The notes beneath the pieces are model-generated. The model was not told the origin of the DNA. It saw only the letters and a program-made list of their open reading frames with translations, and did not search any database. A DNA stretch of 64,000 nucleotides from Methylotuvimicrobium alcaliphilum 20Z. GTDB taxonomy: Bacteria > Pseudomonadota > Gammaproteobacteria > Methylococcales > Methylomonadaceae. The stretch spans positions 1,674,001 to 1,738,000 of the forward strand of contig NC_016112.1 of NCBI RefSeq assembly GCF_000968535.2, in the 5' to 3' direction. Below, in pieces: positions 2,482 to 64,000 of the stretch (the first letter of the stretch is position 1; each line of letters starts with the position of its first letter). The position numbers and the translations under genes are program-made.

Positions 2482-3281
2482 GCCGTTTAGCCGCAAAATT
2501 CGATGAGCTTTCCAAATCAGGCCGTAAGGCTTTAATTCCATTTTTGACGGCCGGCGATCCGCATCCGAATTTTACCGTGCCGATGATGCATGCGATGGTG
2601 GAAGCGGGCGTTGATATTATTGAGCTTGGCGTACCGTTTTCCGATCCGATGGCAGACGGGCCGGTTATTCAGAAAGCCAGTGAACGTGCCTTGGCGCATA
2701 AAATGAGTTTAAGAAAAGTACTCAATATAGTCGCCGAATTCAGAAGAAAGGATGACCAAACGCCGGTTGTGTTGATGGGCTATTTAAATCCGATCGAGGC
2801 AATGGGTTACGAAGACTTTGCCAATGCGGCGCAACGCGTAGAAATCGATGGTGTGCTGACGGTTGATTTGCCGCCTGAGGAGGCCGATTTCTGTGTTTCG
2901 TTGCTGAATGAACGCGGTATCGATCCGGTTTTTTTGTTGGCGCCTAATAGTAATGAAGAACGCATTCGTAAAATGGATGCGGCGGGCAGTGGCTATATTT
3001 ACTACGTTTCACTCAAAGGTGTGACCGGTGCCGGGCACTTGAATACCGCCGATGTCGAGGAAAGGCTGAAGTTAATTCGTGCGAATACTCGATTGCCGAT
3101 CGGTATCGGCTTCGGTGTCAAGGATGCCGAAACGGCAAAGACAGTGGCTCATTTAGGTGATGGTGTCGTTGTCGGTAGCGCCTTGATCAGTAAAATCGAA
3201 GCGAATTTGGATAATCCGGAGCAGGCCTGTTCCGAAATAGTCGATTTACTTAAAGCCATGCGCGCCGCAATGGATGAATAA
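2478..3281 (+). CDS. trpA: Tryptophan synthase alpha chain
   Basis: Cleaves indole-3-glycerol phosphate to indole and glyceraldehyde 3-phosphate and channels indole to TrpB. 267 residues, TIM barrel. The catalytic glutamate lies in [10 protein letters not shown] and the catalytic aspartate in [10 protein letters not shown]; the phosphate-binding GIGFGVKD and GVVVGSAL loops are present. GTG start at 2478, chosen because it overlaps the trpB stop and gives the usual [10 protein letters not shown] amino end. Confidence 0.98.
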
Positions 3282-3317
3282 GTCGTCGATCACATGAGCG
3301 AATTCGGAGTTTAAAAT

Positions 3318-4262
3318 ATGAGTTGGTTTGAAAAACTGGTCCCCTCAACAATCAGAACAGACGGGACTAACAAGAAAAAAGGCGCTGTGCCAGAGGGCTT
3401 ATGGACCAAATGTCCGAGTTGTAACGCGATTCTCTATAACAACGAATTGGAACGAAATTCCAGTGTGTGCCCTAAATGCAATCATCACATGCGGATATCG
3501 GCAAGAGTACGTTTGGAATTATTTCTCGATGAGCAGGATCAAGAAGAAATCGGTCAACATATCAAACCGACCGACCCGCTTAGATTCAAGGATTCCAAAC
3601 GCTATAAAGACCGTATCAGCCAAGCGCAAAAACAGACCAAGGAAAGCGATGCCCTCGTAGTGATTAAGGGTAAGCTCAAGAATAAAGATATCGTAGCCGC
3701 TGCGTTCGATTTTAGTTTTATGGGCGGTTCGATGGGGTCGGTGGTCGGTGAGCGTTTCGTGCGAGGCGTGAATGAGAGTCTCGAAATGGGTGCGCCGTTC
3801 ATTGTTTTTACCGCCAGCGGCGGCGCTCGCATGCAGGAATCGTTGTTTTCATTGTTTCAAATGGCGAAAACCAGTGCGGCCTTGACTAGGTTGTCGGAAG
3901 CGGGATTGCCGTTTATTTCGTGTATGACCGACCCGACGATGGGCGGTGTTTCCGCAAGTTTGGCGATGCTTGGCGATATTAATGTCGCCGAACCGAATGC
4001 CTTAATTGGTTTTGCAGGGCCTCGCGTCATCGAGCAAACCGTTCGAGAAAAGTTGCCGGAAGGTTTTCAACGTAGCGAGTTTTTGCAAGAGCACGGCGCT
4101 ATCGACATGATTGTCGATAGGCGTGAAATGCGCGATAAAATTGCTGCAATGCTGGCGATTTTGATGGCTTCGCGGATGGAAACGAAAATATGCCCGACTA
4201 TAGAAGAGCCTCTTATCTTGGCCGAATCCGAGCCTTTGCCTGCCGTTCAGGATTCAGTGTAA
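3318..4262 (+). CDS. accD: Acetyl-CoA carboxylase carboxyltransferase subunit beta
   Basis: Beta subunit of the carboxyltransferase that moves CO2 from biotin to acetyl-CoA to make malonyl-CoA for fatty acid synthesis; pairs with AccA. 314 residues. The N-terminal four-cysteine zinc ribbon (CPSCNAILY ... [11 protein letters not shown], residues about 32-55) and the crotonase-fold core with GGARMQES and the PTMGGVSAS loop are complete. Lies between trpA and folC as in many gammaproteobacteria. The C-terminal tail after about residue 285 is poorly conserved, as usual. Confidence 0.97.
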
Positions 4263-4317
4263 TTATAATAAATTGGCAGCAATTATAATCGGCAGAATGA
4301 TTCTACAGTTGCGGTTA

Positions 4318-4449
4318 GACCACGATAAGCACGAAAGACACAACAAAAATCGGTCCGCGATAGGGCTTAAGTTTGCAGTTATTGGATGTGGCGATCCACG
4401 ACTGGCTATTACGTTGGCGCTTTCGTGCTTTTTTGTGTTTTCGTGGACC
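4318..4449. repeat. Inverted-repeat-bounded intergenic element (CACGA-rich type)
   Basis: The accD-folC gap is bounded by an imperfect inverted repeat: left GACCACGATAAGCACGAAAG, right (reverse complement) GTCCACGAAAACACAAAAAA. Related TTTTCGTGGAC sequences occur at about 10713-10732 and at both ends of 37570-37833. It looks like a small non-coding dispersed repeat. Frames that read through it (e.g. from 4373) add no recognisable protein sequence and were not used for folC. Confidence 0.5.
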
Positions 4450-4465
4450 CCATAATTTTTCTGAG

Positions 4466-5737
4466 ATGAAGCATTTCGATACGCTTGAGGGCTGGCTGAA
4501 GTGGCAGGAAGGTTTGCATCCGCAAACGATCGATCTAGGCTTGGAGCGAGTGCAGAGCGTATTTCGAGCATTGCAACCGGATTACGATAAACCGACGACG
4601 ATCACGGTAGCAGGGACCAATGGCAAAGGTTCATGCGTGGCTTTCTTAGAATTCATTTATCGGGCTCAAGGTTATCGAGTCGGTACATATACTTCTCCGC
4701 ATATTCTAAGTTATAACGAACGTATAAAAATAAACGGCAAACCGGTTAGCAACGATTTGATCTGTTCGGCTTTCGAGCGAATTGAATCGGTTCGAGCCGG
4801 TGTATCGTTGAGTTACTTCGAATTCGGTACCTTGGCCGCGCTCGATATTTTTTCCAGGGCTAATCTCGATGTGCAATTGTTGGAGGTAGGTTTGGGCGGG
4901 CGTCTTGATGCCGTCAATATTGTGGACCCCGACGTTTCTATTATTTCCAGCATCGGGATCGATCATGCGGACTGGCTCGGCGAAACGCGCGAGCTGATCG
5001 GTCGTGAAAAGGCCGGTATTTTTAGAAAGCACGTTCCTGCGATTATCAGCGATCCTGAATCACCTGACTCGATATACGAATATGCAAACGAAATTGAGGC
5101 CCCGGCTTTTTTCATCGGGTGCGATTTTGCGTATCGTAAGCAGCCGAAAGGTTGGATATGGTATACACCCGATCGGCAGATCGAAGAATTGCCGGAACCT
5201 AATCTCAAAGGCGAGCATCAATATCGAAATGCGGCTGCTGTGGTAATGGCCGTGACCCTAATGTCTTCACGACTGCCGATTAGTGTGGATTCGATAAGGC
5301 AGGGCATCGAATCCGTTGAACTAATCGGGCGTTTTCAAATCATTCATGACGAGATACCTGTCCTACTCGATGTCGGGCATAATCCGCAAGCCGTTCAGAC
5401 CTTGGCCGACTATCTGAGTGATAATTTTTCCGGCAAACGCATTCATGCCGTGTTTACGATGATGAAGGATAAAGATATTCCTGGCGTTATCAGTATCATG
5501 AAACCATTGGTTCATCAGTGGTACTTTGTGCCGTTAAAAGACAATCCTCGGTGCGCTTCCGAGGCAATGATGCAAGATTATTTTGAACAGTGCAAAATTA
5601 CGGCTGTCGATTTCGGTTTTTCAGGATTGCAAGATGCATTGGATAGCGCCAAGACTAAAGCCGGAAAAAACGATTTATTATTGGTTTTCGGTTCTTTCTT
5701 TTTAGTATCTGAATATTTAGGAATATGCACAAGATAA
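4466..5737 (+). CDS. folC: Bifunctional dihydrofolate synthase / folylpolyglutamate synthase
   Basis: Adds glutamate to dihydropteroate and to tetrahydrofolates (folate synthesis and retention), ATP-dependent, Mur-ligase superfamily. The chosen ATG at 4466 gives 423 residues starting MKHFDTLEGWLKWQEGLHP, the usual N-terminus; the longer open frame upstream is repeat-derived. Visible are the P-loop TVAGTNGKGSC, TSPHILSYNERI, GLGGRLDAVN, the central-domain SSIGIDHADWLG and the C-terminal-domain DVGHNPQA. The stop is followed at once by a palindromic repeat. Confidence 0.95.
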   Translation: MKHFDTLEGWLKWQEGLHPQTIDLGLERVQSVFRALQPDYDKPTTITVAGTNGKGSCVAFLEFIYRAQGYRVGTYTSPHILSYNERIKINGKPVSNDLICSAFERIESVRAGVSLSYFEFGTLAALDIFSRANLDVQLLEVGLGGRLDAVNIVDPDVSIISSIGIDHADWLGETRELIGREKAGIFRKHVPAIISDPESPDSIYEYANEIEAPAFFIGCDFAYRKQPKGWIWYTPDRQIEELPEPNLKGEHQYRNAAAVVMAVTLMSSRLPISVDSIRQGIESVELIGRFQIIHDEIPVLLDVGHNPQAVQTLADYLSDNFSGKRIHAVFTMMKDKDIPGVISIMKPLVHQWYFVPLKDNPRCASEAMMQDYFEQCKITAVDFGFSGLQDALDSAKTKAGKNDLLLVFGSFFLVSEYLGICTR

Positions 5738-27012: not shown

Positions 27013-27779
27013 GTGCGCCCAGGAGGGCACAAAATCAGCAGGGTGTAAGTCCCTGTCGGCGTAAGCCATAACGTCGTAGCTGAAAGTAACTGCGTCACCG
27101 CGAGGTGGGGTGGAGAGCAACTGGAGGCAAAAGAGCAGTCCGCAGTAAAGCGAATCCGATTCGGCGGGGTAAGGCGGCGAGTCCCCTGGGAGTCGACGAA
27201 GCCTGAAAACCATCATTTACGTTGTTGTGGCAGATAAAACGATAAATGGGCCTACCTTGTGGTTGGGAGTGGAATGTTCAGAAGGTATTGTGAAGAAACT
27301 GGGGAGACCTGTTACGGAGGTGACCGTGGCAGGAGTCAGAACCCTTATATTACCGTAAGTCGAGGAAGCTCAAGGCAAGGCGAGGATAGTGTGGCACCGC
27401 TGGGAAACCAGGCGCAAACAGAGAAAACAAACACGAGCCTAAACCGAGAGGGGAAAAGATGGTAAAAGCCGGCTAGCAAAACCGGCCATAGGAAAGAAGG
27501 GTAGGAAGGTGGAAACGAGGTAGCGTTCGGTGTCACGGCCATTAAGCCAACCTCAGGTAAAAGGCTTAAAGAGGCTCAGCCGTTGAAGGGAGCCGAAGGT
27601 AACGAATCAAACCGAGTTTGCGGGCTGACGTGGTAACGCGGAGTAATGGGGTTCACCAATTAATAACACCATTGCTCACCAGCTTGTCCCGATGAGGAAA
27701 CCACCGACTGGAGAGCCGTGTGCGGGAGAACCGCATGCACGGTTCGGAGGGAGGGGAGAGAAATCTTCCCTACCCCTAT
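27013..27779 (+). mobile_element. Group II intron lacking an intron-encoded protein
   Basis: Starts GTGCGCCCAGGAGGGCAC, the GUGYG-type 5' end of bacterial group II introns, and ends in CCTACCCCTAT, a domain VI-like arm with a bulged A and an AY 3' end. Domain V is clear (separate entry). The 767-bp length equals a ribozyme core; no reverse transcriptase/maturase frame exists in it (the 68-codon frame at 27259-27465 has no RT motif), so splicing or mobility would need help in trans. It sits within a palindromic repeat. Boundaries are judged from end motifs and comparison with the uninterrupted repeat at 26604-26687. Confidence 0.82.
27713..27745 (+). ncRNA. Group II intron domain V
   Basis: A 33-nt hairpin GAGCCGTGTGCGG - GAGA - ACCGCATGCACGGTTC: AGC catalytic triad at 27714-27716, GNRA-type GAGA tetraloop, and a bulge in the expected place. 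Its integrity suggests the ribozyme core may still be active. Confidence 0.85.
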
Positions 27780-31427: not shown

Positions 31428-32857
31428 CATAAGCGCCAACTTAAGACGCAAGGCATTGATTCACAGTTGAAAAATCAAGATGTGGCCACAACATAGAGTA
31501 TTTTTACCGACGAAAGTGAAAATCCCTATGAAGCAGCCACAGCTAACAGATACCCTTTTTGATGACTTTTTGCAAGAGCTCCCAGCAGATTTCCAGGAGC
31601 AGGCCTATGAATTACAGGCGTTTGCACGGGCACGGAAAATCCGATCACCGTTGCAATTATTGCAGTTAGTCCTGTTGTATTGCGGACAGGACTTGTCGTT
31701 GCGCAGCTGTGCCGGCGAAGTTGCCAAGCTTCAAGGCTATTTGAGCGACACGGCGGTGACCAAGCGACTGGCGGCCTGCGTGGTGTGGATCAAGTCGTTA
31801 CTGAAGCGTGTGTTCGGATTGGATAAACAGATCAACAATGGCTCCTTGAATTTCATTGTGATTGACGGTTCGACCGTGCAAGAACCCGGCGCGAAAGAAA
31901 CAACGTATCGCTTGCATGTGGCGATCGACTTGATGAGCTTGACACTTCGCGAGGTCAACGTCACGACCGATAAAGTCGGCGAGAGCTTGGATCACTATCA
32001 GTTGACTGCAGGTGATGTCGCGTTGGTTGATCGAGGCTACAACCAACCGAAGTCTTTAGTCCCGCTCATTGATCGCGGCGGCCACGTCGTACTGCGCTAC
32101 AATCCACACAGCATGACGCTTTACGAACGGTGCAACGAACCGAAAGTGTTAAAATCGATTGGGAACAGCGCATACGCGATTTGAATGGTCAGCCGGGTGC
32201 GATACCGGTTTATCTGTGCCATCAAGACAAACGTATTGAAGGCGTGGTGCATGCGATGCCGTTACCGCCGGAACAGGCGCGCAAGCACGCCGCAAAGCGA
32301 AACAACGCGCGCGTGATAAAGGTCGCACGGCGAGCCAAAAGACCTTGATGCTGAGCGGCTGGGTGTTGATTTTTACTTCGCTCCCCGAAGCGCTGCTCGA
32401 CACGAAATCAATCGCTGAGCTCTACCGGGTTCGCTGGCAAGTGGAGCTGGTCATAAAGCGGCTAAAGAGCTTGCTTGATATCGACCGGCTACGCGCCCGA
32501 AAAGACAGCAAGCTGGCGGATTTATATTTGCACGGCAAGTTACTGTTTGCTGCAGTGACTCAAAAAATAGCGCAGCGCCGATTCGGCCGGGCGGCTACCA
32601 CAATGGACGGTGATCGTTCGATTACCCATTGGCGTTTATGGCGCACGATCGCCAATGAGATCAAGGCAGGACTTACGGCTTGTTTTCCAAAAAATGAGCG
32701 CTTTATTGATGACCACGTAAAAAGCCTTTGTGAACGTCCGCGCAAGAGAAAGCTTCAGGGTTTGCCGGGGCGTGTTTTGGAGCTCATTATTGAAGGTCGG
32801 GGAGGTGGCGTTAGTCTTACTTAATCAAATACTTAGATTCTTAAGTTGGCGCTTATG
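31428..32857 (+). mobile_element. IS4-family insertion sequence, copy 1 (decayed), 1430 bp
   Basis: Ends CATAAGCGCCAACTTAAGA and its inverted copy, identical to those of the intact element at 54314-55745. Flanked by an 11-bp target duplication CCATGGCAACC (31417-31427 and 32858-32868). It is two bases shorter than copy 2 because of two single-base deletions in the transposase gene (about 32146 and 32278). Confidence 0.92.
31528..32824 (+). pseudogene. IS4-family transposase, frameshifted
   Basis: Aligns along its whole length with the 432-residue transposase at 54414-55712. A lost G near 32146 ends the first frame shortly after ERCNEPKV; a second lost G near 32278 precedes the frame that continues from about 32345 with the YRVRWQVELVIKRLK signature. 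The first frame retains only two of the acidic residues and the second the third, so the product is not functional; it could be moved by copy 2 in trans because the ends are intact. Confidence 0.9.
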
Positions 32858-50037: not shown

Positions 50038-50150
50038 GGTGATTGTCCTTCCCAAGTCTGATTGACGGAAAAACGGAGGGGAAGACAAACCAAAAAAGAT
50101 TTGACAGATCGCCCGCCGCAATACTGTTCTGCAAGGCGATTTCCGGCGAA

Positions 50151-50277
50151 AAACATACCCAACTAACTGGTCTTTTTGTCCATCTACTGCAAACCGGAAA
50201 GGGTTACATAGCGCAACTATGCGCCCCTTTCCGGTTTTTGTAGCTGAACAAAAATCCTGCGTTATTTGGGTATGTTT
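50151..50277 (-). promoter_or_regulatory. Nested palindrome in the cob leader, possible riboswitch expression platform
   Basis: Outer arms AAACATACCCAA (50151-50162) and TTGGGTATGTTT (50266-50277) enclose a stronger stem AAACCGGAAAGGG (50191-50203) with CCCTTTCCGGTTT (50225-50237). It is between the riboswitch and cbtB. In the minus direction there is no good T-run after the stem, while in the plus direction TTTTT follows; so a minus-strand terminator is doubtful and it may be a dispersed repeat. Confidence 0.45.
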
Positions 50278-50299
50278 ATTCTTGTCAATCGCCTAAGTT

Positions 50300-50400
50300 T
50301 TAGGGCCTGTCTCCGGGCTCGTGAAAAATCACCTACCGTTGCGGGGGCAGCGCCGGCCTTTAACCGGCTTCCAGTTTCACCCGCGCAGTGCGGGAACCGT
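50300..50400 (-). ncRNA. Cobalamin (adenosylcobalamin) riboswitch
   Basis: Read on the minus strand: GGTTCCCGC...GGGTGAAACTGG-AAGCCGG, then GCTGCCCCCGCAACGGTA (about 50350-50333) and the B12-box AGCCCGGAGACAGGCC (50319-50304). These match the conserved blocks of cobalamin riboswitches in order. It should lower expression of cbtB and the following eleven genes when cobalamin is plentiful. Confidence 0.92.
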
Positions 50401-50414
50401 AAAACAAGCTGGGG

Positions 50415-50443
50415 ATTATAGGTTACCCATCAAAACCGTGCAA
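50415..50443 (-). promoter_or_regulatory. Promoter of the cobalamin operon
   Basis: Minus-strand TATAAT (50420-50415) with TTGCAC (50443-50438) 17 bases upstream. Transcription would begin about 50408, just before the first riboswitch stem. The -10 is perfect, the -35 has only the TTG. Confidence 0.65.
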
Positions 50444-50449
50444 ATGGAA

Positions 50450-50592
50450 TGTAAGTATTCAGTCACCTCTTTGAAAAAGAGGGGCTAGGGGAGATTTTAT
50501 AAATAAATCCCCCTCAATCCCACTTTTCAAAGGGGGAGGCCAACAATAAGCCTGGATTGCGGTAATTTGCCTACGGGGTCTGAATACTTACA
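50450..50592. repeat. 143-bp inverted-repeat element upstream of the NRPS gene
   Basis: Terminal TGTAAGTATTCAG (50450-50462) and its inverted copy CTGAATACTTACA (50580-50592). The interior has CCTCTTTGAAAAAGAGGGGC and its near-inverse TTTTCAAAGGGGGAGG, a motif common among dispersed bacterial repeats. No gene is visible between 50278 and 50952 apart from the riboswitch and this element. Confidence 0.65.
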
Positions 50593-50952: not shown

Positions 50953-53900
50953 GTGTTAAACGATCGACCTAATTTTGACAGTTCCGTTATCGATGCCCCA
51001 TTACTCGACGGGGCAATATCCTTAACCGACATATTACAACGCCGCGCGGTATGCCATCCGCACCGAACCGCATATACATTCCTGGATTTCGGCGGCCCAA
51101 CCCCTCGTTCACTAACCTACGGCGAACTCAATCAAGAAGCTAGGCAATTGGCTTTTCAATTACATCGAATGGAACTACGAGGCGAGCGAGCGGTATTGCT
51201 CTATCCGCCCGGGCTGGACTATATCGTAGCGTTTTATGCGTGCTTGTATTCCGGCACTATTGCCGTTCCAGCCTATCCGCCCAGCAACAATCGGCATATG
51301 CCCAGGTTGCAGGCCATCATTGACGACAGCAAGGCGAAAATCATTCTGACTACCGGTCAAGTGGCGAATAGCATTCGCCAATTTGCCGGCGCCACGGAAA
51401 ATTTGTTAGATAGGCGCTGGGTTCAAACCGATACCCTCGAAACTCACGATACCGGCTTATGGCAAGCTTCGGTATTGCAAGAAAAGGATCTAGCCTTTCT
51501 GCAATATACCTCGGGCTCGACCGGAAACGCCAAGGGTGTCATGATCAGCCACGGCAACTTGATGGCCAATCAGCAATTGATCCAACGCCGATTCGGCCAC
51601 GACGAACGGTCGACGGTAGTCGGTTGGTTACCGCTTTATCATGATATGGGACTGATCGGCAATGTCATGCAGCCTCTGTATTGCGGGGCCAGCGCCGTTT
51701 TGATGTCTCCGATGGCATTTTTGGAAAAACCGTTACGCTGGCTGCAGGCGATTAGCGATTACCGGGCGCACACCAGCGGCGGTCCTAACTTTGCCTACGA
51801 TTTATGCACTCAAAAAATTAGCCGCGATGAACTGGAGGCTATTGACCTCGGTAGTTGGCAATTGGCATTTAACGGTGCAGAGCCGGTCAATCCTAAAACG
51901 TTGGAGCGATTCAGCCGGACCTTCGCAGACTGCGGATTTCAACGCTGCGCGTTCTATCCCTGTTACGGTCTGGCAGAAGCCACGTTATTGGCAACGGGAG
52001 GTACGAAACAATCTCCGCTGACAATAGCTGCGTTCGATCGAGCCGCCTTGGAAGACCGGACCGCTCGGCCGGTTGCAGACAATCATCCGAATGCCAAACA
52101 ATTCGTCGGTTGCGGAGCTGCCGATAGCCATGCCGGACAAGACTTACGTATTGTCGATCCCGATAACAATGAAATCTATGCGGATGGCAGAATCGGAGAG
52201 ATTTGGCTTAGCGGCCCGAGTATCGCCCAAGGTTATTGGAAAAATCCGGAAACCAGCCAAAAGACCTTTGTGAACGATACCGGCGGCAAACGCTGGTTAC
52301 GTACCGGCGATTTAGGCTTTATCAACGATGGAGAATTATTCGTTTCCGGTCGGCTAAAAGACTTGATCATCGTCCGCGGCCGTAATTATTACCCGCACGA
52401 CCTGGAATATGCCGTCGAATCGGCTACCGATGCGCTGAACCCGGCATCCACGGTCGCGTTTGCCCTTGCGGAAGACGAAGCCGAAAAAGTGATCGTGTTG
52501 GCCGAATTGAAGCGCAACCGGATCAGGCAAGGCGATTATCAACACGAATTCGCCGCCATTCGCGCCCGCTTGACAGAAGAATGCGGTATTCAGGCCGAAC
52601 GTATCGTATTGCTCAAGCCCGGCGCCATATTAAAAACCAGTAGCGGCAAACTGCGCCGCAGTGCGTGCAGGGACCTTTATGTGCAACAGGGTTTTGCATG
52701 CATCGCCGTCGACGCGCTGCAAGCAGCCAACGACACGACACCGCCGCCGGTGAATGTGGATAAAGGCACTCACGAGAGGCGCTTATTACGCCAGGCCTTG
52801 TTGTCGATGAATTGCACTCATGCCATCGATCTGTTGGCTGGACACCTTGCAATCAAAGCGGCCGAGTTATCCGGCGCGGCCGAAGACACTATCGAACCGA
52901 ATCATACCCTGACCGGCCTGGGTTTGGATTCGCTAAAAGCCGTGGAAATGAAATATTTCATCGACGAATTATTAGCGGTGGACATGCCGATTACCGGCTT
53001 ACTCGGCAACGCCACCCTGTTTGACAGTGCGCTAACGGCATTGAATTTGGCCAAGACTGTCGGCCAAGAGACACCGTCTCTTATCGATAAAGACGGCCAG
53101 GGTTCGAATACCGCCATGTCATACAACCAACAGGCGTTGTGGACACGGGCAAAAATAGAAAGTGACGAAGCAACGCTGTATCACATGCCGATCGCATTGC
53201 AAATACGGGGGGAATTGGATTACCCAGCGCTGGATCGCGCGCTGGCCGAATTGCACCGGCGTCATTCGCAATTATGCAGAGGCTTTGATCTAGGTGCCGA
53301 TAATCGTCCTATTAGCTTCCCGCTGGAACGATTGGAATCGTCGCCGGTACGCACTGTTTGTAGCGATTATGTTCAGCAAATGAAGGCGCTAGACGTTCTT
53401 ATCAACAAACCGTTCGATCTGCAACACGGGCCGCTGCTGCGATGCGGAATTTTCAGTTGCAGCGATGACGATCATATCCTGGCTTTTTGCGCCCATCACC
53501 TGATCGTCGATTTTCGGTCCTCACGGGTACTACTCGCCGAATTGCAGGCTTTATATGCGGGATACCTTAACGGCATCCCCGCCAACTTACCGCTGTCGCA
53601 AGCCGACTATGCCGAATTCGTGTCCTGGCAACGGGACTACCTGAATAGCGAAGCCGCCGAACAAGACCTTGATTATTGGCGCCGGCAACTGGCAGGCGAA
53701 TTGCCCAGGCTGGAGCTGCCAGGTTATTTCGTCACCGAACCGACGCAAGCAAGTTCTGCCGGCATGGAAAGACTGTCGATAGCAGCTGACACGCTCATTC
53801 GGCTGAAAAACTTGGCGGCTGAACAACACGTTACCTTATATACGTTGTTATTGACCGTATTCAAAATACTGTTGTATCGATACAGCTCTCAAAACGATCT

Positions 53901-54318
53901 AATTGTAGGGTCGCCAACGTTTGGCCGCCCATTAAGTCGATTTGCCGATCTGGTGGGTTACTTCGTAAATCCCGTTGCGTTGCGGAGCAAGCCGGGCGGC
54001 GGCTTAAGGTTCAGCGAATACCTAAGCGCCGTCAATACCGTGGTACTTGGCGCATTGGAGCATCAGCACTATCCGCAAACGCGCATCATTGAAAATTTAC
54101 GAAGCGAGAAGGGGCAAGGTACGCTAGAACTCTACCGCATTTTCTTCGCTTTGCAAGACGGTTCCGACCCAATGGCTGCCGCATTGGCAATCGGAAATGC
54201 CGGCATCAGTCTGCAATGGGCTGGCTTCGAAGCCGTAATTTGTAAATTGCCCAATACCGCCGAGGAATTCGATTTAGCCATGTTAGCCGCTGAAACCGGA
54301 GAAGGGTTATCGGCATAA
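50953..54318 (+). CDS. NRPS part 1: fatty acyl-AMP ligase, carrier protein and interrupted condensation domain
   Basis: About 1121 residues from GTG 50953 (GGAGGG just before); an in-frame TTG at 50713 and an ATG at 50851 are alternatives. FAAL domain (about 10-590): LQYTSGSTGNAKGVMISHGN, FYPCYGLAEATLLATGG and SSGKLRRS. Carrier domain with the phosphopantetheine serine in GLGLDSLKAVEM (Ser codon 52930-52932). C domain from about 53110, with HHLIVDF at the catalytic site. The last three codons (tail ...LSA then stop) come from the IS that begins at 54314; the C domain lacks its final ~40 residues. It would load a fatty acid as the lipid starter of a lipopeptide. Broken by the insertion, see findings. 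Confidence 0.85.
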   Translation: MLNDRPNFDSSVIDAPLLDGAISLTDILQRRAVCHPHRTAYTFLDFGGPTPRSLTYGELNQEARQLAFQLHRMELRGERAVLLYPPGLDYIVAFYACLYSGTIAVPAYPPSNNRHMPRLQAIIDDSKAKIILTTGQVANSIRQFAGATENLLDRRWVQTDTLETHDTGLWQASVLQEKDLAFLQYTSGSTGNAKGVMISHGNLMANQQLIQRRFGHDERSTVVGWLPLYHDMGLIGNVMQPLYCGASAVLMSPMAFLEKPLRWLQAISDYRAHTSGGPNFAYDLCTQKISRDELEAIDLGSWQLAFNGAEPVNPKTLERFSRTFADCGFQRCAFYPCYGLAEATLLATGGTKQSPLTIAAFDRAALEDRTARPVADNHPNAKQFVGCGAADSHAGQDLRIVDPDNNEIYADGRIGEIWLSGPSIAQGYWKNPETSQKTFVNDTGGKRWLRTGDLGFINDGELFVSGRLKDLIIVRGRNYYPHDLEYAVESATDALNPASTVAFALAEDEAEKVIVLAELKRNRIRQGDYQHEFAAIRARLTEECGIQAERIVLLKPGAILKTSSGKLRRSACRDLYVQQGFACIAVDALQAANDTTPPPVNVDKGTHERRLLRQALLSMNCTHAIDLLAGHLAIKAAELSGAAEDTIEPNHTLTGLGLDSLKAVEMKYFIDELLAVDMPITGLLGNATLFDSALTALNLAKTVGQETPSLIDKDGQGSNTAMSYNQQALWTRAKIESDEATLYHMPIALQIRGELDYPALDRALAELHRRHSQLCRGFDLGADNRPISFPLERLESSPVRTVCSDYVQQMKALDVLINKPFDLQHGPLLRCGIFSCSDDDHILAFCAHHLIVDFRSSRVLLAELQALYAGYLNGIPANLPLSQADYAEFVSWQRDYLNSEAAEQDLDYWRRQLAGELPRLELPGYFVTEPTQASSAGMERLSIAADTLIRLKNLAAEQHVTLYTLLLTVFKILLYRYSSQNDLIVGSPTFGRPLSRFADLVGYFVNPVALRSKPGGGLRFSEYLSAVNTVVLGALEHQHYPQTRIIENLRSEKGQGTLELYRIFFALQDGSDPMAAALAIGNAGISLQWAGFEAVICKLPNTAEEFDLAMLAAETGEGLSA

Positions 54319-55745
54319 GCGCCAACTTAAGACGCAAGGCATTGATTCACAGTTGAAAAATCAAGATGTGGCCACAACATAGAGTATTTTTACCGACGAA
54401 AGTGAAAATCCCTATGAAGCAGCCACAGCTAACAGATACCCTTTTTGATGACTTTTTGCAAGAGCTTCCAGCAGATTTCCAGGAGCAGGCCTATGAATTA
54501 CAGGCGTTTGCACGGGCACGGAAAATCCGATCACCGTTGCAATTATTGCAGTTAGTCCTGTTGTATTGCGGACAGGACTTGTCGTTGCGCAGCTGTGCCG
54601 GCGAAGTTGCCAAGCTTCAAGGCTATTTGAGCGACACGGCGGTGACCAAGCGACTGGCGGCCTGCTTGGCGTGGATCAAGTCGTTACTGAAGCGTGTGTT
54701 CGGATTGGATAAACAGATTAACAATGGCTCCTTGAATTTCATTGTGATTGACGGTTCGACCGTGCAAGAACCCGGCGCGAAAGAAACAACGTATCGCTTG
54801 CATGTGGCGATCGACTTGATGAGCTTGACACTTCGCGAGGTCAACGTCACGACCGATAAAGTCGGCGAGAGCTTAGATCACTATCAGTTAGCCGCAGGTG
54901 ATGTCGCGTTGCTTGATCGAGGCTACAACCAACCGAAGTCTTTAGTCCCGGTCATTGATCGCGGCGGCCACGTCGTGCTGCGCTACAACCCACACAGCAT
55001 GACCCTTTACGAACGGTGCAACGAACCGAAAGGTGTTAAAATCGATTGGGAACAGCGCATACGCGATTTGAATGGTCAGCCGGGTGCGATACCCGTTTAT
55101 CTGTGCCATCAAGACAAACGTATTGAAGGCGTGGTGCATGCGATGCCGTTACCGCCGGAACAGGCGGCGCAAGCACGCCGCAAAGCGAAACAACGCGCGC
55201 GTGATAAAGGTCGCACGGCGAGCCAAAAGACCTTGATGCTGAGCGGCTGGGTGTTGATTTTTACTTCGCTCCCCGAATCGCTGCTTGACACGAAAACAAT
55301 CGCTGAGCTCTATCGGGTTCGCTGGCAAGTGGAGCTGGTCATAAAGCGGCTAAAGAGCTTGCTTGATATCGACCGGTTACGCGCCCGAAAAGACAGCAAG
55401 CTGGCGGATTTATATTTGCATGGCAAGTTACTGTTTGCTGCAGTGACTCAAAAAATAGCGCAGCGCCGATTCGGCCGGGCGGCCACCACAATGGACGGTG
55501 ATCGTTCGATTACCCATTGGCGTTTATGGCGCACGATCGCCAATGAGATCAAGGCAGGACTTACGGCTTGTTTTCCAATAAATAAGCGATTTATCGATGA
55601 CTGCATAAAAAGCCTCTGTGAGCGTCCGCGCAAGAGAAAGCTTCAGGGTTTGCCGGGGCGTGTTTTGGAGCTCATTATTGAAGGTCGGGGAGGTGGCGTT
55701 AGTCTTACTTAATCAAATACTTAGATTCTTAAGTTGGCGCTTATG
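54314..55745 (+). mobile_element. IS4-family insertion sequence, copy 2 (intact), 1432 bp
   Basis: Terminal inverted repeats CATAAGCGCCAACTTAAGA at both ends. Flanked by the 11-bp duplication AGGGTTATCGG (54303-54313 and 55746-55756). It has one full transposase gene and lies in the same orientation as the NRPS gene. The other copy is at 31428-32857; the two are nearly identical apart from a small number of substitutions and two indels. Confidence 0.95.
54414..55712 (+). CDS. IS4-family DDE transposase
   Basis: 432 residues from ATG 54414 (MKQPQLTDTLFDDFLQELPA); an in-frame ATG at 54366 adds 16 residues. DDE catalytic residues in NFIVIDGSTVQ, VALLDRGYN and the Y-(2)-R-(3)-E-(6)-K signature in LYRVRWQVELVIKRLK. 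Full length and uninterrupted, so the element is probably mobile and could mobilise copy 1. Confidence 0.95.
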   Translation: MKQPQLTDTLFDDFLQELPADFQEQAYELQAFARARKIRSPLQLLQLVLLYCGQDLSLRSCAGEVAKLQGYLSDTAVTKRLAACLAWIKSLLKRVFGLDKQINNGSLNFIVIDGSTVQEPGAKETTYRLHVAIDLMSLTLREVNVTTDKVGESLDHYQLAAGDVALLDRGYNQPKSLVPVIDRGGHVVLRYNPHSMTLYERCNEPKGVKIDWEQRIRDLNGQPGAIPVYLCHQDKRIEGVVHAMPLPPEQAAQARRKAKQRARDKGRTASQKTLMLSGWVLIFTSLPESLLDTKTIAELYRVRWQVELVIKRLKSLLDIDRLRARKDSKLADLYLHGKLLFAAVTQKIAQRRFGRAATTMDGDRSITHWRLWRTIANEIKAGLTACFPINKRFIDDCIKSLCERPRKRKLQGLPGRVLELIIEGRGGGVSLT

Positions 55746-55756
55746 AGGGTTATCGG

Positions 55757-58700
55757 TAACATTCCGTTATCGCTGTGATGCATTGCAGCGCAAAACCGTA
55801 CTCCGGTTACTGGGGCATTTTCAATGCTTACTGCATGGCGTATTGGCCGATCCGGACTGCCTTTTGAGCGAACTGCCGCTATTGACCGTATCGGAACGCA
55901 GGCAGCAGATGGCATGGAATTCCACGGCATTCGATCATCCCGATATTCCTACTCTACATGGGTTGTTCGAAACCCAAACCGAGAAAACCCCGGACGCCAT
56001 CGCGCTGAGCTTTGGAGGCGATAGCCTAAGCTACGCCGAACTGAACGCCAAAGCCAACCAACTGGCACACTACCTGATCGAACTGGGCGTGGGACCGGAC
56101 GTACTGGTGGGCATCTGTCTGGAACGCTCGCTGAAGATGGTGATCGGTTTGCTAAGCATCTTGAAGGCCGGCGGGGCTTACGTGCCGCTCGATCCCAACT
56201 ATCCGGCCGAGCGGCGGGCATTGATATTGGCCGATGCCGGCGTCAAGCTATTGCTAACCCGCGAAGCACTGAACTCCGAACTCGCGGAGAATTCGGATTC
56301 GATGACGGCGCAAGGCGGAGTCGTCTACCTAGACCGCGACGGGCCGGCCATTGCCGCGTATCCCGCGACGAACCCGACGGTGAGCATACATCCCTTGCAT
56401 CTGGCCTATCTGATTTATACCTCCGGCTCGACCGGTCGCCCGAAAGGCGTGGCGGTCTGTCACGGCAACGCGGTGCATTCGACTCTTGCTCGTTTCCAAG
56501 CTTACCCCGATCCGGTCGAGGCCTATCTGCTGCTATCCTCGTTCGCCTTCGACAGCTCGGTGGCCGGCATTTTCTGGACCTTGGGCCAAGGCGGCCGCCT
56601 GTGCTTACCCAATGACGACGCCGGTAAGGATCCAGCCGAGCTAGCGGCCTTGATCGAACGCCATCGCGTCTCGCACCTGCTGGCCCTACCCTCGCTGTAT
56701 CGCCTGCTACAGGAACAACCGGCCACGCAATTGTCCGGACTGAAAGCCGTCATCGTCGCCGGCGAAGCCTGTACCACCGACGTGGTCCAGCACCATTTCG
56801 ACGTCTTGCCTGCCGTCAAACTCTACAACGAATACGGCCCAACCGAGGGCACGGTCTGGAGCAGCGTTTATCTCGCCGAACCGGACGACCTGGACCGGCC
56901 ATTAGCGATCGGCCGGCCCATCGCCAACGTTCGCCTCTACATCCTAGACCGGAACCTCAATTCGCTGCCGGCCGGCGTGGCCGGCGAACTGTACATCGGC
57001 GGCGCCGGTGTTGTGCGCGGTTACCTGCAGCGTCCGGCGCTGACGGCGGAACGCTTTATCCCCGATCCATTTCAAGCCGACGGCGGCCGTTTGTACAAAA
57101 CCGGCGACATCGCACGCTATCGGCCGGACGGCAACATCGACTACCTGGGCCGCATCGACCACCAAGTCAAAATTCGGGGTTTCCGCATCGAACTGGGCGA
57201 AATCGAAGCGCAATTGCTCAAGCAAGCGGAGATCAATGACGCCGTGGTGATTGCCAGAGAAGATCAACCCGGCGACAAGCGCTTGGTGGCTTATCTGGTT
57301 CCGCATGCAGAGGCCAACACCGAGGCCGTGCGAGCTAATGTCGATCGCCTTAAAGCCCAACTCAAACAACATCTGCCGGACTACATGGTGCCTAGTACCT
57401 TCGTAGTACTAGAGGCTATGCCACTGTCTGCTAACGGCAAGTTGGATAGGAAGCAGTTACCGGCGCCGGATCTCAGCGAACAACTGAAAAAGGCCTACAT
57501 AGCACCGCGCACGGAAACCGAACGAGTTCTGGCCGAGATTTGGCAGGAAGTCTTGGGAGTCGAACAAGTGGGCATAGAAGACGATTTTTTCGAATTGGGA
57601 GGGCATTCGTTGTTGGCCACGCAATTGATGTCGCGAATTACCAAGCGCTTTTCGATTGAATTACCGCTACGCGACCTATTCGAGCATGGCCAGATTGCGG
57701 CCTTGGCTGAAATGATAGCAAGACAGCAAGCCGACGGGAACGCACTACATGCGGTCACGATACTGCCCTACCCCCGCGACGCCCTGATCCCACTATCCTA
57801 TGCCCAACAACGCCTGTGGTTTCTGGACCAACTGGAGCCGGACAACCCCTTCTACAACATCCCGGTGGCTTTACGTCTAATCGGTTGCCTGGATATTGCC
57901 GCGCTGGCGCAAAGCTTCGCGGCCATCGTCCGCCGGCACGAAGTGCTGCGGACCGTGTTCGACACTGGCCCGGACGGCGAAGCCGTGCAACTCATTCTTC
58001 CGGACCTGATAGCGGAACTGGAACCCATCGACCTGACCGGTTTAGGAGCCGGTCAAGAGGATGCATGGCAAGCGTTATGCGGGCAAGAAGCCGCCGAACC
58101 TTTCGACTTGCGTAACGGCCCCTTGATCCGCGCTCGTTTGTTGCGGCTAAAAGATAATGCCGAACAGCAGGATGCGCTGCTGTTATTAACCATGCACCAC
58201 ATCGTCTCCGACGGTTGGTCGGCGGAACTGTTGGTCAAGGAATTCAGCGCGCTGTACCGGGCGTTTACACAAGGACTCGCCGCGCCGCTGGCGGAATTAC
58301 CGATTCAATACGCCGATTTTTCCTGCTGGCAGCGTCAGTGGTTGAACGGAGAGGTACTGGAGCGCCAGTTACATTACTGGCGGCAACAACTAGACGGCTC
58401 GCCGCTGGTGTTGGACCTGCCGACCGACCGACCGCGGCCAGCGGTAATGACCTACCGTGGTGCCACCTTATCGTTCGAGCTGCCGTTGGAAACGGCGCAA
58501 GCGATACGGGCGTTGAGCCGGCAACACAATGTCTCGTTGTTCATAGCGCTATTAGCCGTATTCCAACTACTGCTCAGCCGATACAGCGGCCAAGCGGATC
58601 TGTGCGTCGGCAGTCCGGTAGCCAACCGCAATCGACCGGAAATTGAAAGCGTGATCGGCTTTTTCGTCAACACCTTGGTCCTGCGCGCCGACCTCTCGAC

Positions 58701-61047
58701 CAACCCGACGGTGGCCGAATTGTTGGCGCAAATCAAAACCACGGTCCTGGATGCCCAACAGCACCAAGACCTGCCGTTCGAAAAACTGGTCGAAGCGCTG
58801 CAGCCTGAGCGCGACCCGAGCCGCAGTCCGCTGTTCCAAGTCATGTTCGTACTGGCCAAACAAGAGCCGCTGACGTTAAGGCTGCCGGATTTAAGCGTCG
58901 AATTGATCGAAGATTCCGGCAAGATAGCCAAATTCGACTTAACCCTGCATATTCAAGACTGGCCGGACGGCAGGATCAGCGGAAGCTGGGAATACAACAC
59001 CGACCTGTACGATGTTAGCAGTATCGAACGGCTGGAACGGCATTACCAACAACTGCTGCAAGCGATTGTTGCCCAGCCGCAGTGCAGAGTCAGTGAACTC
59101 CCGCTGCTGAGCGAAGCGGAAACCCGGCAAATTCTCATCGACTGGAACGCGACCGAAGTTGCCTATCCGCAGGGCCGCTGTATTCACCAGCTGTTCGAAG
59201 CGCAAGCCGAGAAAACTCCGGGTGCGATTGCGCTGAGCTTTGAAGATCAGCATCTCACCTACGCCGAATTGAATGCCCAAGCCAACCAACTGGCGCATTA
59301 CCTGATCGAGCGGGGTGTGAGCCCGGACGTGCTGGTCGGCATTTGCCTGGAACGCTCGCTGGAGATGGTCGTCGGCTTGCTGGGAATCTTGAAGGCTGGC
59401 GGGGCTTATGTACCGCTAGATCCTCACTATCCGGCCGAGCGGCGGGTGTTGATCTTTGCCGATGCCGGCATCGAGCTATTGCTAACCTGCGAAGCACTGA
59501 ACGCCGAACTTGCAGAGAATGCTGCGTACCCTACGGACTTGTTGACGAGAGATTGTATCATCCACCTAGACAGCGACGGGCCGGCTATGGCCGGGTATCC
59601 CGCCACGAACCCGTCAGTGAGCGTGCATCCTTTGCATTTGGCCTATCTAATCTACACCTCCGGTTCCACCGGCCGGCCCAAAGGCGTGGCGGTGAACCAC
59701 CGCAACGCGGTGCATTCCACTTGGGCCAGGCTCAGCGAATATCCCGAACAGGTGCAAGCTTATCTGTTGTTATCGTCGCTTGCTTTCGACAGCTCGGTGG
59801 CCGGCATCTTCTGGACCCTAGCTCAAGGCGGTTGTTTATGCCTACCCCATGAAGACAGCAGCAAAGACCCGGTGTCGCTGGCTGCCTTGATCGAGCGACA
59901 TGACATCTCCCACTTGTTGGCCTTGCCGTCGCTGTATGCGGTGCTCTTGGAACAAACTACCCAAGCCTTAAGCCGTCTGCAAGTCGCCATCGTCGCCGGC
60001 GAAGCCTGTCCGACTGATGTCGTTAAACGCCACCTTGCCGTTTTGCCCGATGCCAAACTCTACAACGAATACGGCCCGACCGAAGGCACTGTCTGGAGCA
60101 GCATCTATCTTGCCGGGCCAGACGACCAGGATCGGCCTTTAGCGATCGGCCGGCCGATCGCCAACGTCCGCCTTTACAACCTGGATCGCCAACTAAACCC
60201 AGCCCCAATCGGCGTGGCCGGCGAACTGTACATCGGCGGTGCCGGCATCGTGCCCGGCTACTGGCAACGCCCTGGCCTGACCGCCGAACGCTTCATCCCC
60301 GACCCCTTTGGCCCGGCCGACGGGCGGTTGTACAAAACAGGCGACCTTGTGCGCTATCGCGCCGACGGCGCAATCGAGTTCCTGGGACGACTCGACCACC
60401 AAGTCAAGATTCGCGGTTTTCGCATTGAACTGGGTGAAATCGAAGCCCAATTGTTGCAACAACCGGAGATCAAGGACGCCGTAGTGGTTGCACGAGAAGA
60501 CCAACCCGGCGACAAACGGTTGGTGGCTTATGTGGTTCCACTTCCGACGGAAGCAGACACAGAGACCGAGCGCAACCTCGCCGAGCACCTCAAAACCATG
60601 CTCAAACAACATCTGCCGGATTACATGGTGCCCAGCGCCTTCGTGGTACTGAAGGCCATGCCGCTGTCCGCCAACGGCAAACTCGACCGCAAACGGCTAC
60701 CGACACCGGATTTCATTGGCTTCGGCAATCGCGAATACGTAGCGCCGACTGGCGAAACCGAAGAAGCTATAGCCGAAGTCTGGCAGCAATTGCTGGGTGT
60801 TGAACGTATTAGCCGCAACGATCATTTCTTCGAATTGGGCGGGCATTCATTGCTAGTCATTCAACTCATTCAACGTCTTTCGGTACTCGAGATGACGATA
60901 GACGCGAGAACTGTATTTATTACGCCGATATTGGCAAATATGGCATCGGCAGTAACCGTTCGCCAAAACAATTTTGAAATTCCGCCCAATTTGCTTGACC
61001 AAGCGGAATACGAGCCCGAAGAAACGCTAGAGGAATTCAGATTATGA
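55757..61047 (+). pseudogene. NRPS part 2: end of C domain, then A-PCP-C-A-PCP, separated from its start by the IS
   Basis: Continues the part 1 frame exactly (after one target-duplication copy); a TTG at 55783 is the first internal start but has no RBS. Domains: last ~40 residues of C1; A1 (LIYTSGSTGRPKGVAV, YNEYGPTEGTVW, YKTGDIARY, NGKLDRK); PCP1 (FELGGHSLLATQL); C2 (MHHIVSDGWS, complete HHxxxDG); A2 with the same core motifs; PCP2 (FELGGHSLLVIQL); an acidic tail ending ETLEEFRL. Core motifs are complete in both A domains. It extends a lipid-primed peptide by two residues. The stop overlaps the next ATG (ATGA at 61044-61047). If read at all, it needs a transcript from within the IS or the upstream promoter. 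Confidence 0.85.
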
Positions 61048-64000
61048 GTTTGGAACAGGTTATCGCCAGGATACAAGAAAAAAATATCGGGGTATTGTTG
61101 GACGGCGGGGAATTGGTGATCCGCGCTCCGCAAGGGGCGATGGACGCGGAGACTATGTGCTTGCTAAAACATCACAAACAATCGCTGATCGAGTTGCTGC
61201 AAACATGGAACGACGATTCGATCAGAATAAAAAGTGCACCGTCGTCCGCAAGTATCACCCCCACCAAATTGCCGTTGATTGAGTTGTCGCAAACCGACAT
61301 CGACCGCATTGTCGAGACCGCGCCGGGCGGCATCGGTAATATTCAAGACATTTATCCGTTAGCGCCGCTGCAATCGGGCATCTTATTTCACCACTTGATG
61401 GACGCCGAAGGCGACACTTACTTATCAAGATCAATCCTTGCCTTCGATAGCCGCGAAAGGGTGGATCGCTTCGTTGCGGCATTGCAGCAAGTCATCGAGC
61501 GGCACGATATACTCCGTACCTCTTTGGCTTGGCAGGATTTGCCTCAGCCGGTGCAGGTGGTTTGTCGAAAAGCATTATTGCCGCTTCATGAGTTGGCTGC
61601 TCCGAGCGGCGGCGCATTGGTGTCATTATTGGCTGCTAGCGACCCAAGCCATGTGCGCTTGGATTTGGGTAAAGCGCCTTTGTTAGCGGCATACGTGATA
61701 GCCGAGCCGCAAAACGGCGAATGGTTATTGGCACTGCTAAACCACCATATCGTTTGCGACCATATCAGCCTGGAATTCATTATTGGCGAAATTCGTTTAC
61801 TGCTGAATGGGCGCGCTAATGAGTTGCCGCCAGCGTTTCCCTATCGCAATTTCATCGCTCAGCTTCGATTGCTGGATCCCGACAAACACGAATGCTATTT
61901 CCGCGAACAGCTTGGCGACGTTATCGAGCCAACGGCACCGTTCGACATACTGGATATGAAAAATTGCGGCGAGATTACCGAAGCGAAAACGGCCATTGCG
62001 GACAGTCTGACGGGACGGATCCGAACCCAAATCAAGCGCTACGGCGTCAGCGCAGCGGTATTGTATCATTTGGCCTGGGCCAGAGTCTTGGCGCAATGTT
62101 GCGGGCAAGACGACGTCGTATTCGGTACGGTCTTAACCGGCCGCATGTGGGGTGGTGAGGGGATCGAACGGACGGTGGGGATGTTTATCAATACTTTGCC
62201 GCTTAGAATCCGGGTGGGCGAGGTTTCTGTCGCAAAGGCGTTGGCTGCTACCCAACAACAATTGACCGTGCTGATCGCGCATGAGCAAGCCTCGCTAGCG
62301 TTGGCGCAGCGCTGTAGCGGCGTAGATTCGGGATTGCCGTTGTATACCGCGCTACTGAACTACCGGCACAGCCAACAGACCGATGAAGACAGCGCTAATC
62401 CGTGGCCGGGAATGAGGGTTGTGGTGGGCGGCGAAGAGCGAACCAACTACCCGATTACGCTAACGGTAGACGATTTCGGCGACGGTTACGCGTTAACGAT
62501 GCAATGCGTCCGGAGTTTGCAGCCTGACAAGCTCAACGAGTATATGTCGACGTCGTTGGAAGACATCGTAAGCGCGCTAGAAACGAATCCTCAGCTGCTA
62601 ATGCGCACGATCTCGGTGGTTGGGGGCATCGAACGCCGGCAAATCCTAGTCGACTGGAACGTGTCCGAAGTTAACTACCCGCAAGACCGCTGCATTTACC
62701 AATTGTTCGAAGCGCAAGCCGAGAAAACTCCGGATGCGATTGCGCTGAGCTTTGAAGATCAGCATCTCACCTACGCCGGACTGAATGCCCACGCCAACCA
62801 ACTGGCGCACTACCTGATCGAGCGGGGTGTGGGCCCGGACGTGCTGGTCGGCATCTGCCTGGAACGCTCGCTGGACATGGTGATCGGCTTACTGGGCATC
62901 TTGAAGGCTGGTGGGGCTTATGTGCCGCTCGATCCGGGGTATCCCGAGGAACGTTTGGCCTTCATGCTGACCGACATTGCGCCCAGCGTGGTCTTGACTC
63001 AAGACCGATTCGCCGGGCTGGACTTTGCCGGAGCTCAAGCGCTCATCTTGGATAGCGATTGGGCGAATGTAGCGGTTCACCCCGCCGAAAATCCACGCCC
63101 CAATCTAATGCGCGGCAATCTGGCTTATTGCATCTATACCTCCGGCTCCACCGGAAAACCCAAAGGCGCCGGCGTGCCGCATCAAGGTATTTTGAACCGT
63201 CTGCAATGGATGCAGGACGAATACGGCTTAGATGACACGGACGCTGTCCTGCAAAAAACCCCGTACAGCTTCGATGTGTCGGTCTGGGAATTCTTCTGGC
63301 CGTTGATGACCGGCGCCCGTTTGGTCGTAGCGGCACCGGATTTGCACAAAGACAGCCAAGGCTTGATCGAACTGATCCGGCGCACAGACATCACCACCAT
63401 CCACTTCGTCCCGTCCATGCTGCAAGCCTTCGTCGATACGCCGGGCGTCGAACGCTGCACAAACCTGAAACGGGTTATCTGTAGCGGTGAAGCGTTGCCG
63501 GCAGAACTGGTACGACGCTTCCAGCAAAAACTGCCGGCCGCGTTGCACAATCTGTACGGCCCAACCGAAGCTTCGATCGACGTCAGCTATTGGGCCTGTC
63601 CGCAAAATTGCCAAGAAACCGCGATTCCGATCGGCAAACCGATTGCCAATATCCGTCTGCACATTCTCGACAGTAGCCTGAACCCGGTGCCGATCGGTAC
63701 ACTCGGCGAACTGCACATCGGCGGCATCGGCTTGGGCCGCGGTTACCTAAACCGTCCCGATTTAACGGCGGAAAAATTCATTCCTGATCCGTTCGGCCCG
63801 GCAGGCAGCCGGCTGTACAAAACCGGCGACCTCACACGCTACCGGCCGGACGGCGATATCGAGTACCTGGATCGCATCGACCACCAAGTCAAAATTCGGG
63901 GTTTCCGCATCGAATTGGGCGAAATCGAAGCACAAATGCTGGCGTATCCAAGCATTAAGGAAGCCGTGGTGCTGGCACGGGAGGATCAACCTAATGACAA
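61044..64000 (+). CDS. Second NRPS: TubC-type docking domain, dual-type C domain, serine-type A domain (3' end outside the window)
   Basis: The open frame runs off the right edge (more than 985 residues). Residues 1-55 (SLEQVIARIQEKNIGVLLDG, MCLLKHHKQSLIELL) form a TubC-type N-terminal docking domain, which should bind the tail of the preceding synthetase. Then a condensation domain starting IYPLAPLQSGILFHHLMDAE-GD, where HHLxxxxGD is the extra motif of dual epimerization/condensation domains, with HHIVCDH at the catalytic site. Then A3 (CIYTSGSTGKPKG, FDVSVWEFF, NLYGPTEASID, YKTGDLTRY). By alignment its pocket residues are D-V-W-H-I-S-L-I-D, close to the known serine code. Confidence 0.88.
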   Translation, partial: MSLEQVIARIQEKNIGVLLDGGELVIRAPQGAMDAETMCLLKHHKQSLIELLQTWNDDSIRIKSAPSSASITPTKLPLIELSQTDIDRIVETAPGGIGNIQDIYPLAPLQSGILFHHLMDAEGDTYLSRSILAFDSRERVDRFVAALQQVIERHDILRTSLAWQDLPQPVQVVCRKALLPLHELAAPSGGALVSLLAASDPSHVRLDLGKAPLLAAYVIAEPQNGEWLLALLNHHIVCDHISLEFIIGEIRLLLNGRANELPPAFPYRNFIAQLRLLDPDKHECYFREQLGDVIEPTAPFDILDMKNCGEITEAKTAIADSLTGRIRTQIKRYGVSAAVLYHLAWARVLAQCCGQDDVVFGTVLTGRMWGGEGIERTVGMFINTLPLRIRVGEVSVAKALAATQQQLTVLIAHEQASLALAQRCSGVDSGLPLYTALLNYRHSQQTDEDSANPWPGMRVVVGGEERTNYPITLTVDDFGDGYALTMQCVRSLQPDKLNEYMSTSLEDIVSALETNPQLLMRTISVVGGIERRQILVDWNVSEVNYPQDRCIYQLFEAQAEKTPDAIALSFEDQHLTYAGLNAHANQLAHYLIERGVGPDVLVGICLERSLDMVIGLLGILKAGGAYVPLDPGYPEERLAFMLTDIAPSVVLTQDRFAGLDFAGAQALILDSDWANVAVHPAENPRPNLMRGNLAYCIYTSGSTGKPKGAGVPHQGILNRLQWMQDEYGLDDTDAVLQKTPYSFDVSVWEFFWPLMTGARLVVAAPDLHKDSQGLIELIRRTDITTIHFVPSMLQAFVDTPGVERCTNLKRVICSGEALPAELVRRFQQKLPAALHNLYGPTEASIDVSYWACPQNCQETAIPIGKPIANIRLHILDSSLNPVPIGTLGELHIGGIGLGRGYLNRPDLTAEKFIPDPFGPAGSRLYKTGDLTRYRPDGDIEYLDRIDHQVKIRGFRIELGEIEAQMLAYPSIKEAVVLAREDQPND

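What the first reader, a model, noticed from the sequence alone, without database searches (positions are those of the whole stretch)
50953..61047. A lipopeptide synthetase gene split by a fresh IS4-family insertion; removing the IS restores one frame
The sequence shows identical 11-bp duplications (AGGGTTATCGG) on either side of a 1432-bp IS. Joining base 54313 to 55757 gives an unbroken frame (LSVTFRYRCDALQRKTVLRL) that completes the first condensation domain. So a single FAAL-PCP-C-A-PCP-C-A-PCP protein of about 2,900 residues became two fragments. This strain is probably a natural non-producer, or a mixed population.
Basis: partly seen in the sequence, partly recalled or inferred. Interest (0 to 1): 0.75.

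Follow-up and report, generated by a model that had tools for sequence, protein, structure and literature searches.

The report
Mobile element splits siderophore-type peptide synthetase
In this methane-eating bacterium a jumping DNA element has landed inside the first enzyme gene of what looks like a metal-scavenging peptide pathway, most likely stopping production while leaving the export, uptake and control genes readable; a near relative has a different wreck at the same place.

Summary
Observation confirmed. A 1432-bp IS4-family element (54314-55745; 19-bp perfect inverted ends, open transposase frame, exact 11-bp duplication) sits in the first condensation domain of a FAAL-NRPS. Without joining the flanks, relatives show it: 48 of 104 fetched loci hold both halves, and in 46 of these 48 (32 distinct places) the halves form one unbroken frame. 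"Fresh" is not shown: this copy differs by at least 15 bases from each of 11 copies compared.

New: the setting resembles a pyoverdine pathway (second NRPS with reductase, TonB receptor, PepSY, phosphopantetheinyl transferase, FecI/FecR-like pair, cyclic-peptide exporter, amidase, RND pump), so the lipid may only prime a peptide. The closest sister (upstream flank 98.5% identical) has at the same locus a diverged core that is also broken: no FAAL found, an insertion carrying a group II intron, a frameshift; its export and control genes are 97-99.7% identical. Two other congeners have a long open FAAL-NRPS there. Best reading: a structural non-producer by IS insertion, at a locus whose biosynthetic core is swapped and lost. 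Ordinary mechanism, interesting locus.

The parts
   Evidence: FAAL structures are the best solved-structure matches; Condensation profile 7-403 of 456; carrier LGLDSL and HHLIVDF motifs kept
54303..54313 (.). left copy of the 11-bp target duplication AGGGTTATCGG
54314..55745 (+). IS4-family insertion sequence, 1432 bp, 19-bp perfect inverted ends
   Evidence: 8 near-full copies in the genome
54366..55712 (+). transposase, 448 aa, DDE_Tnp_1, YREK signature YRVRWQVELVIKRLK
55746..55756 (.). right copy of the target duplication
55757..61047 (+). right fragment of the first synthetase: end of the condensation domain, A (core 55966-57027), PCP (57526-57717), C (57787-59136, HHIVSDG), A, PCP; first in-frame start codon of the ATG/GTG/TTG kind TTG 55783, first ATG 55909
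61044..64000 (+). second synthetase, runs past the window to window-equivalent 65708: docking-C-A-PCP-reductase

Best explanation
An IS4-family element with IS231-type ends inserted, by the cut-and-paste route known for the family, into the first condensation domain of a FAAL-NRPS gene, duplicating 11 bp. Shown: the insertion, the broken frame, the continuity of the gene in relatives, the open frames around it. Inferred: the split condensation domain cannot pass the fatty acyl group to the first amino acid, and the right half has no good start, so no product is made. Inferred from neighbours: the pathway works like pyoverdine synthesis (acyl-primed peptide, export to the periplasm, removal of the acyl tail, secretion by an RND pump, uptake by a TonB receptor under FecI/FecR-type control), with predicted building blocks His, His, Ser and reductive release. 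The strain is then a structural non-producer that keeps uptake, export and control.
For: Exact ends and duplication; YREK signature and published family features (PMC2266710, passages seen); both halves contiguous in 46 of 48 loci and in 12 of 12 relatives' proteins; no internal stop in the 17 own genes or gene parts of the locus that were translated; neighbours; open frames of 3468 and 3485 codons with a FAAL match at the same chromosomal place in two congeners (domains scanned in G002 only).
Against: No held genome searched has the same gene uninterrupted at strain-level identity: the best named relative is 72% over the left part and 52% over about 1200 residues of the right part. Catalytic motifs of the fragments are kept, so residual function of split parts is not excluded. 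The receptor, FecI-, FecR- and PvdQ-type models score under their curated cut-offs. The His and Ser assignments of the A domains are recalled.
Confidence: 0.8

Rival explanations
1. The two fragments still work together as a two-protein synthetase: the left FAAL-PCP-partial C and the right A-PCP-C-A-PCP are both translated and associate.
For: No stop in 8658 nt of fragments and motifs kept. If the 11 private IS changes arose in place (0.77%), 2.4 stops would be expected without selection, chance of none 0.09.
Against: The cut removes the end of the condensation domain (profile 403 of 456). The right half's first start is TTG 55783 without a convincing ribosome site (by eye) and no plus-strand promoter-like site was listed near the right IS end. 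Recent insertion explains the open frames equally well.
Confidence: 0.06
2. The pathway makes a free lipopeptide (surfactant or antibiotic) and not a siderophore-type metallophore; the neighbours are unrelated.
For: FAAL start, reductase end and sulfotransferase also fit other lipopeptides; the window part of the second synthetase scores best with the SolG model, at about half its cut-off (1114 of 2200). The own TonB receptor scores 172 against a cut-off of 223.5.
Against: TonB receptor, PepSY, FecI/FecR-type pair, cyclic-peptide exporter (455 against cut-off 286), Penicil_amidase and RND pump all lie in the same locus, with TonB, PepSY, amidase, ABC and RND genes also beside the synthetase of congener G002.
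Confidence: 0.2
3. The element is present in only part of the culture or is an assembly artefact.
For: No reads were available; 8 similar copies could mislead an assembly.
Against: The copy differs by at least 15 bases from each of 11 other copies compared and has its own exact duplication, which a mis-join would not create. This speaks against an artefact, not against a mixed culture.
Confidence: 0.05

Closest known systems
IS4 family, IS231 subgroup (De Palmenaer et al. 2008, PMC2266710, passages seen)
   Same: CAT ends with AA at 11-12 and TAA at 15-17 as in the printed IS231 consensus; YREK; single-frame transposase; 11-bp duplication (printed range 10-12)
   Different: 1432 bp, just under the printed 1450-5400 range; no transposase tree across subgroups was made
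Pyoverdine pathway of Pseudomonas (PvdL, PvdE, PvdQ, PvdRT-OpmQ, FpvA; roles recalled)
   Same: acyl-primed NRPS, cyclic-peptide exporter, Penicil_amidase-type enzyme, tripartite pump, TonB receptor with STN domain, FecI/FecR-type regulators
   Different: no chromophore modules seen; predicted His-His-Ser and reductive release; AcrB-type pump where the Pvd pump is, as recalled, MacB-type
Structural siderophore non-producers in natural Pseudomonas (PMC5583256, passages seen)
   Same: synthesis broken, receptor and regulator kept
   Different: there large regions of the synthesis machinery are missing; here one IS in a locus that is otherwise open
Replacement of pyoverdine NRPS sets (PMC11366639, part of abstract and passages seen)
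   Same: core synthetases replaced while the pathway is kept
   Different: here in methanotrophs, and both versions compared are broken

Membership tests
IS4 family | DDE transposase in a single frame with Y(2)R(3)E(6)K | tested here: met
   DDE_Tnp_1 in one frame; YRVRWQVELVIKRLK at residue 316. The spacing of the DDE residues was not measured
IS4 family | target duplication about 10 bp | tested here: met
   11 bp in 7 of 8 copies; L004 has none
IS231 subgroup | ends CAT-------AA--TAA--- | tested here: met
   CATAAGCGCCAACTTAAGA fits
IS231 subgroup | size 1450-5400 bp | tested here: not met
   1432 bp, 18 bp short; therefore called IS231-type ends only
FAAL-initiated NRPS | fatty acyl-AMP ligase, carrier domain, condensation domain | tested here: met
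Pyoverdine synthesis | exporter of the cyclic-peptide type | tested here: met
   TIGR01194 455 bits, cut-off 286
Pyoverdine synthesis | PvdQ acylase | tested here: inconclusive
   Penicil_amidase 527 bits, but the PvdQ model 55.7 against cut-off 950
Pyoverdine synthesis | chromophore modules Glu, Tyr, Dab (recalled) | tested here: not met
   codes DSAAIAEVWK, DSAAIAEV-K (one position unaligned), DVWHISLIDK; read from memory these are not Glu, Tyr or Dab. Not filed as a pyoverdine
Siderophore locus | product binds and delivers iron | not testable with these tools
   needs chemistry

The most novel reading that the evidence does not exclude
In these methanotrophs one fixed chromosomal site between the cobalamin genes and an export/control block holds an exchangeable metallophore core (synthetases, receptor, tailoring genes) that is repeatedly replaced by diverged versions and repeatedly broken by mobile elements, while the export and control block is kept: a social-loss hotspot outside Pseudomonas and Vibrio.
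Probability: 0.3. Interest if true: 0.55.

Novelty: new member of a known kind. Interest (0 to 1): 0.35.

Why it matters
If right, a methanotroph (from memory a laboratory and industrial strain) lacks a metallophore that its ancestors made, which would bear on metal supply in culture and explain a missing product in genome mining. The contrast with the sister's different wreck and two congeners with open frames makes loss of a shared metal scavenger testable in these methanotrophs.

Tried and rejected
Rejected: that the two parts are ancestrally separate genes (46 of 48 loci contiguous). In 9 of 14 relatives listed the first gene does end after one module (1774-1973 aa), in 4 of 14 it exceeds 3000 aa and in 1 it is cut by the contig end (a fifteenth row, L040, repeats L106); but that break lies about 2 kb downstream of the IS, not at it. 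Rejected as shown: 'fresh'. The copy in the gene is 15 bases from its nearest neighbours, while five other copies lie within 0-4 of each other. Its 11 private changes are clustered (three within 4 bp, P 0.0016; four within 19 bp, P 0.0023 against uniform placing), which suggests exchange with a diverged copy, so they date nothing. Decay test: at 324 positions invariant in 12 relatives the window differs at 8; five relatives taken as controls differ at 7, 2, 3, 1 and 2 (of 323, 318, 319, 317 and 318). The window is thus the highest of six, just above one control: weak at best as a sign of decay. Led nowhere: promoter and terminator counts at chance level; paper searches, seen as listings, of which 51, 52 and 53 returned nothing; two papers on methanotroph metabolites and on siderophores opened for passages, without anything on this locus in them; a plasmid search to name the host, which found only partial matches; a DNA search with 1001 bases right of the IS, in which no other of 101 genomes has a near-identical copy.

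Full report
Host. The relatives of the gene centre on one family. The assembly is 4,668,296 + 128,415 bases, which from memory fits Methylotuvimicrobium alcaliphilum 20Z; no call names it. It is not a pathogen by this reading.

The insertion. Window 54314-55745 is a 1432-base element with 19-base perfect inverted ends and the 11-base duplication AGGGTTATCGG on both sides. The transposase frame is open (448 aa from ATG 54366, DDE_Tnp_1) and has the YREK signature. The genome holds 8 near-full copies, 7 of 8 with their own perfect 11-base duplication; L004 has none. Ends and duplication length fit the IS231 subgroup as printed in PMC2266710 (passages), though the element is 18 bases short of the printed size range.

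The broken gene. The left fragment is FAAL-PCP-C. Solved FAAL structures are its best matches, ahead of CoA ligases. Its condensation match stops at profile position 403 of 456. The right fragment carries the rest, then A-PCP-C-A-PCP. I tested continuity without joining: the last 250 residues left of the element and the first 250 right of it were searched separately in 104 fetched loci. 48 had both; in 46 they are adjacent, same strand, in frame, no stop. These 46 are 32 distinct places: 13 are second fetches and L040 repeats L014. 29 of the 32 are in the host family (28 by kinship, L039 by its name). The two exceptions are L038, where the contig ends inside the condensation domain, and L042, a cyanobacterial record with a 29% match of the left half. 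39 loci matched only the right part and 17 neither. The proteins of 12 of 12 relatives tested run across the site with a 2-4 residue overlap, the trace of the duplication. Without the insert, 2883 codons would remain from 50953.

Relatives. The closest named protein, Methylomonas sp. WSC-6, is 72% identical left of the site, 79% over the best segment just right of it and 52% over the longer right segment; its frame runs 3075 codons to the contig end. Among 14 distinct relatives listed, the first gene ends after FAAL-PCP-C-A-PCP in 9 (1774-1973 aa), exceeds 3000 codons in 4, and is cut in 1; domains were scanned in two of them (L039, L104), the rest is read from lengths and alignments. In L104 the next gene is a CmlA-like hydroxylase; frames of similar length follow in others (not scanned). 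So module number varies, but the C-A joint that the element cuts does not.

The pathway. Downstream lie a second synthetase with a terminal reductase domain, a TonB receptor with STN domain, a PepSY_TM protein, a sulfotransferase, a Cupin_8 protein, a phosphopantetheinyl transferase and a sigma factor, then a cyclic-peptide ABC exporter above its cut-off, a FecR-like protein and an outer-membrane channel, a Penicil_amidase protein, a membrane-fusion protein and an AcrB-type pump. The A-domain codes read DSAAIAEVWK, DSAAIAEV-K and DVWHISLIDK; I recall the first type as histidine-like and the last as serine. This is the logic of pyoverdine assembly, without its chromophore modules. I therefore read the lipid as a possible priming group that is later cut off, and the product as a metal scavenger; that is inference.

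The same site in the genus (6 genomes held, own included). The flank upstream of the gene was found in own, G001, G002, G004 and G005; G003 (79% complete) matched only repeated elements in the listed rows. G001: upstream flank 98.5% identical over 3.5 kb. Between the flanks is a diverged core: 79-94% residue identity over the second condensation and A domains of the first synthetase, 65-89% in Cupin_8 pieces, 46% to the second synthetase and 23-27% for the receptor. It has no FAAL match at 1e-100 in the genome, two transposase genes, a 2.2-kb insertion carrying a group II intron in the condensation active-site motif, a frameshift about 220 bases further on, and a transposase piece between the two Cupin_8 parts. 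Synonymous divergence is 0.30 and 0.20 in the two core pieces measured against 0.005-0.048 in seven export and control genes, which are open in both, 97.4-99.7% identical, dN/dS 0.13-0.29. In the same call the phosphopantetheinyl transferase had no synonymous change (ratio undefined), the upstream CbtA gene gave 0.96 and the CobB-like gene 0.13. G002 and G005: open frames of 3468 and 3485 codons with FAAL matches at the same place; only G002 was scanned for domains. G004: the contig ends about 2.3 kb beyond the flank and that stretch was not analysed; G003 and G004 have no FAAL match at that threshold. So in two nearly identical sisters the core differs and is broken in both, by different lesions. 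Which of the two cores is the older resident is not known.

Age. The copy in the gene is 15-17 bases from the group of five near-identical copies (0-4 apart) and 31-32 from the other two own copies. Its private changes are clustered, so they need not have arisen in place. The open frames are compatible with a young insertion; if the private changes were all in place, absence of stops would have chance 0.09. Age is open.

Verdict. The added value is the locus: a pyoverdine-like pathway with an exchanged and twice-broken core beside conserved export and control genes. Prior art: ten searches of the held library, seen as listings with the starts of abstracts, showed no title on this insertion; five papers were opened for passages only. 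Listed papers were not read through, and subscription journals are mostly not held.

Noticed in passing
window 50133-50296 and 50451-50591: Members of two short repeated families (about 160 and 145 bases); the second has several to many copies in each of the 6 genus genomes (list cut).
   Followed up: no
window 50287-50416, minus strand: Cobalamin riboswitch (RF00174, 78.1 bits) ahead of a cobalamin synthesis operon on the minus strand.
   Followed up: no
window 31428-32857: Second copy of the same IS with a broken transposase frame (237 + 194 codons) and duplication CCATGGCAACC.
   Followed up: partly
window 27711-27779: Group II intron domain match (RF00029, 58.4 bits).
   Followed up: no
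L004: An IS copy identical to L005 and L006 but without a target duplication, suggesting a later rearrangement or deletion.
   Followed up: no
L117 1045-5709 (window-equivalent 61044-65708): The condensation domain of the second synthetase reads HHIVCDH where the domains aligned with it read HHxxxDG or HHxxxDA; variant or lesion is open.
   Followed up: partly
window 55783-61047: The two A-PCP units of the right fragment are 75.9% identical in DNA over 1671 aligned positions, as after a module duplication.
   Followed up: no
G119:C68:1130-4535: Another family member has its FAAL match in pieces with a stop inside; sequencing error not excluded.
   Followed up: no
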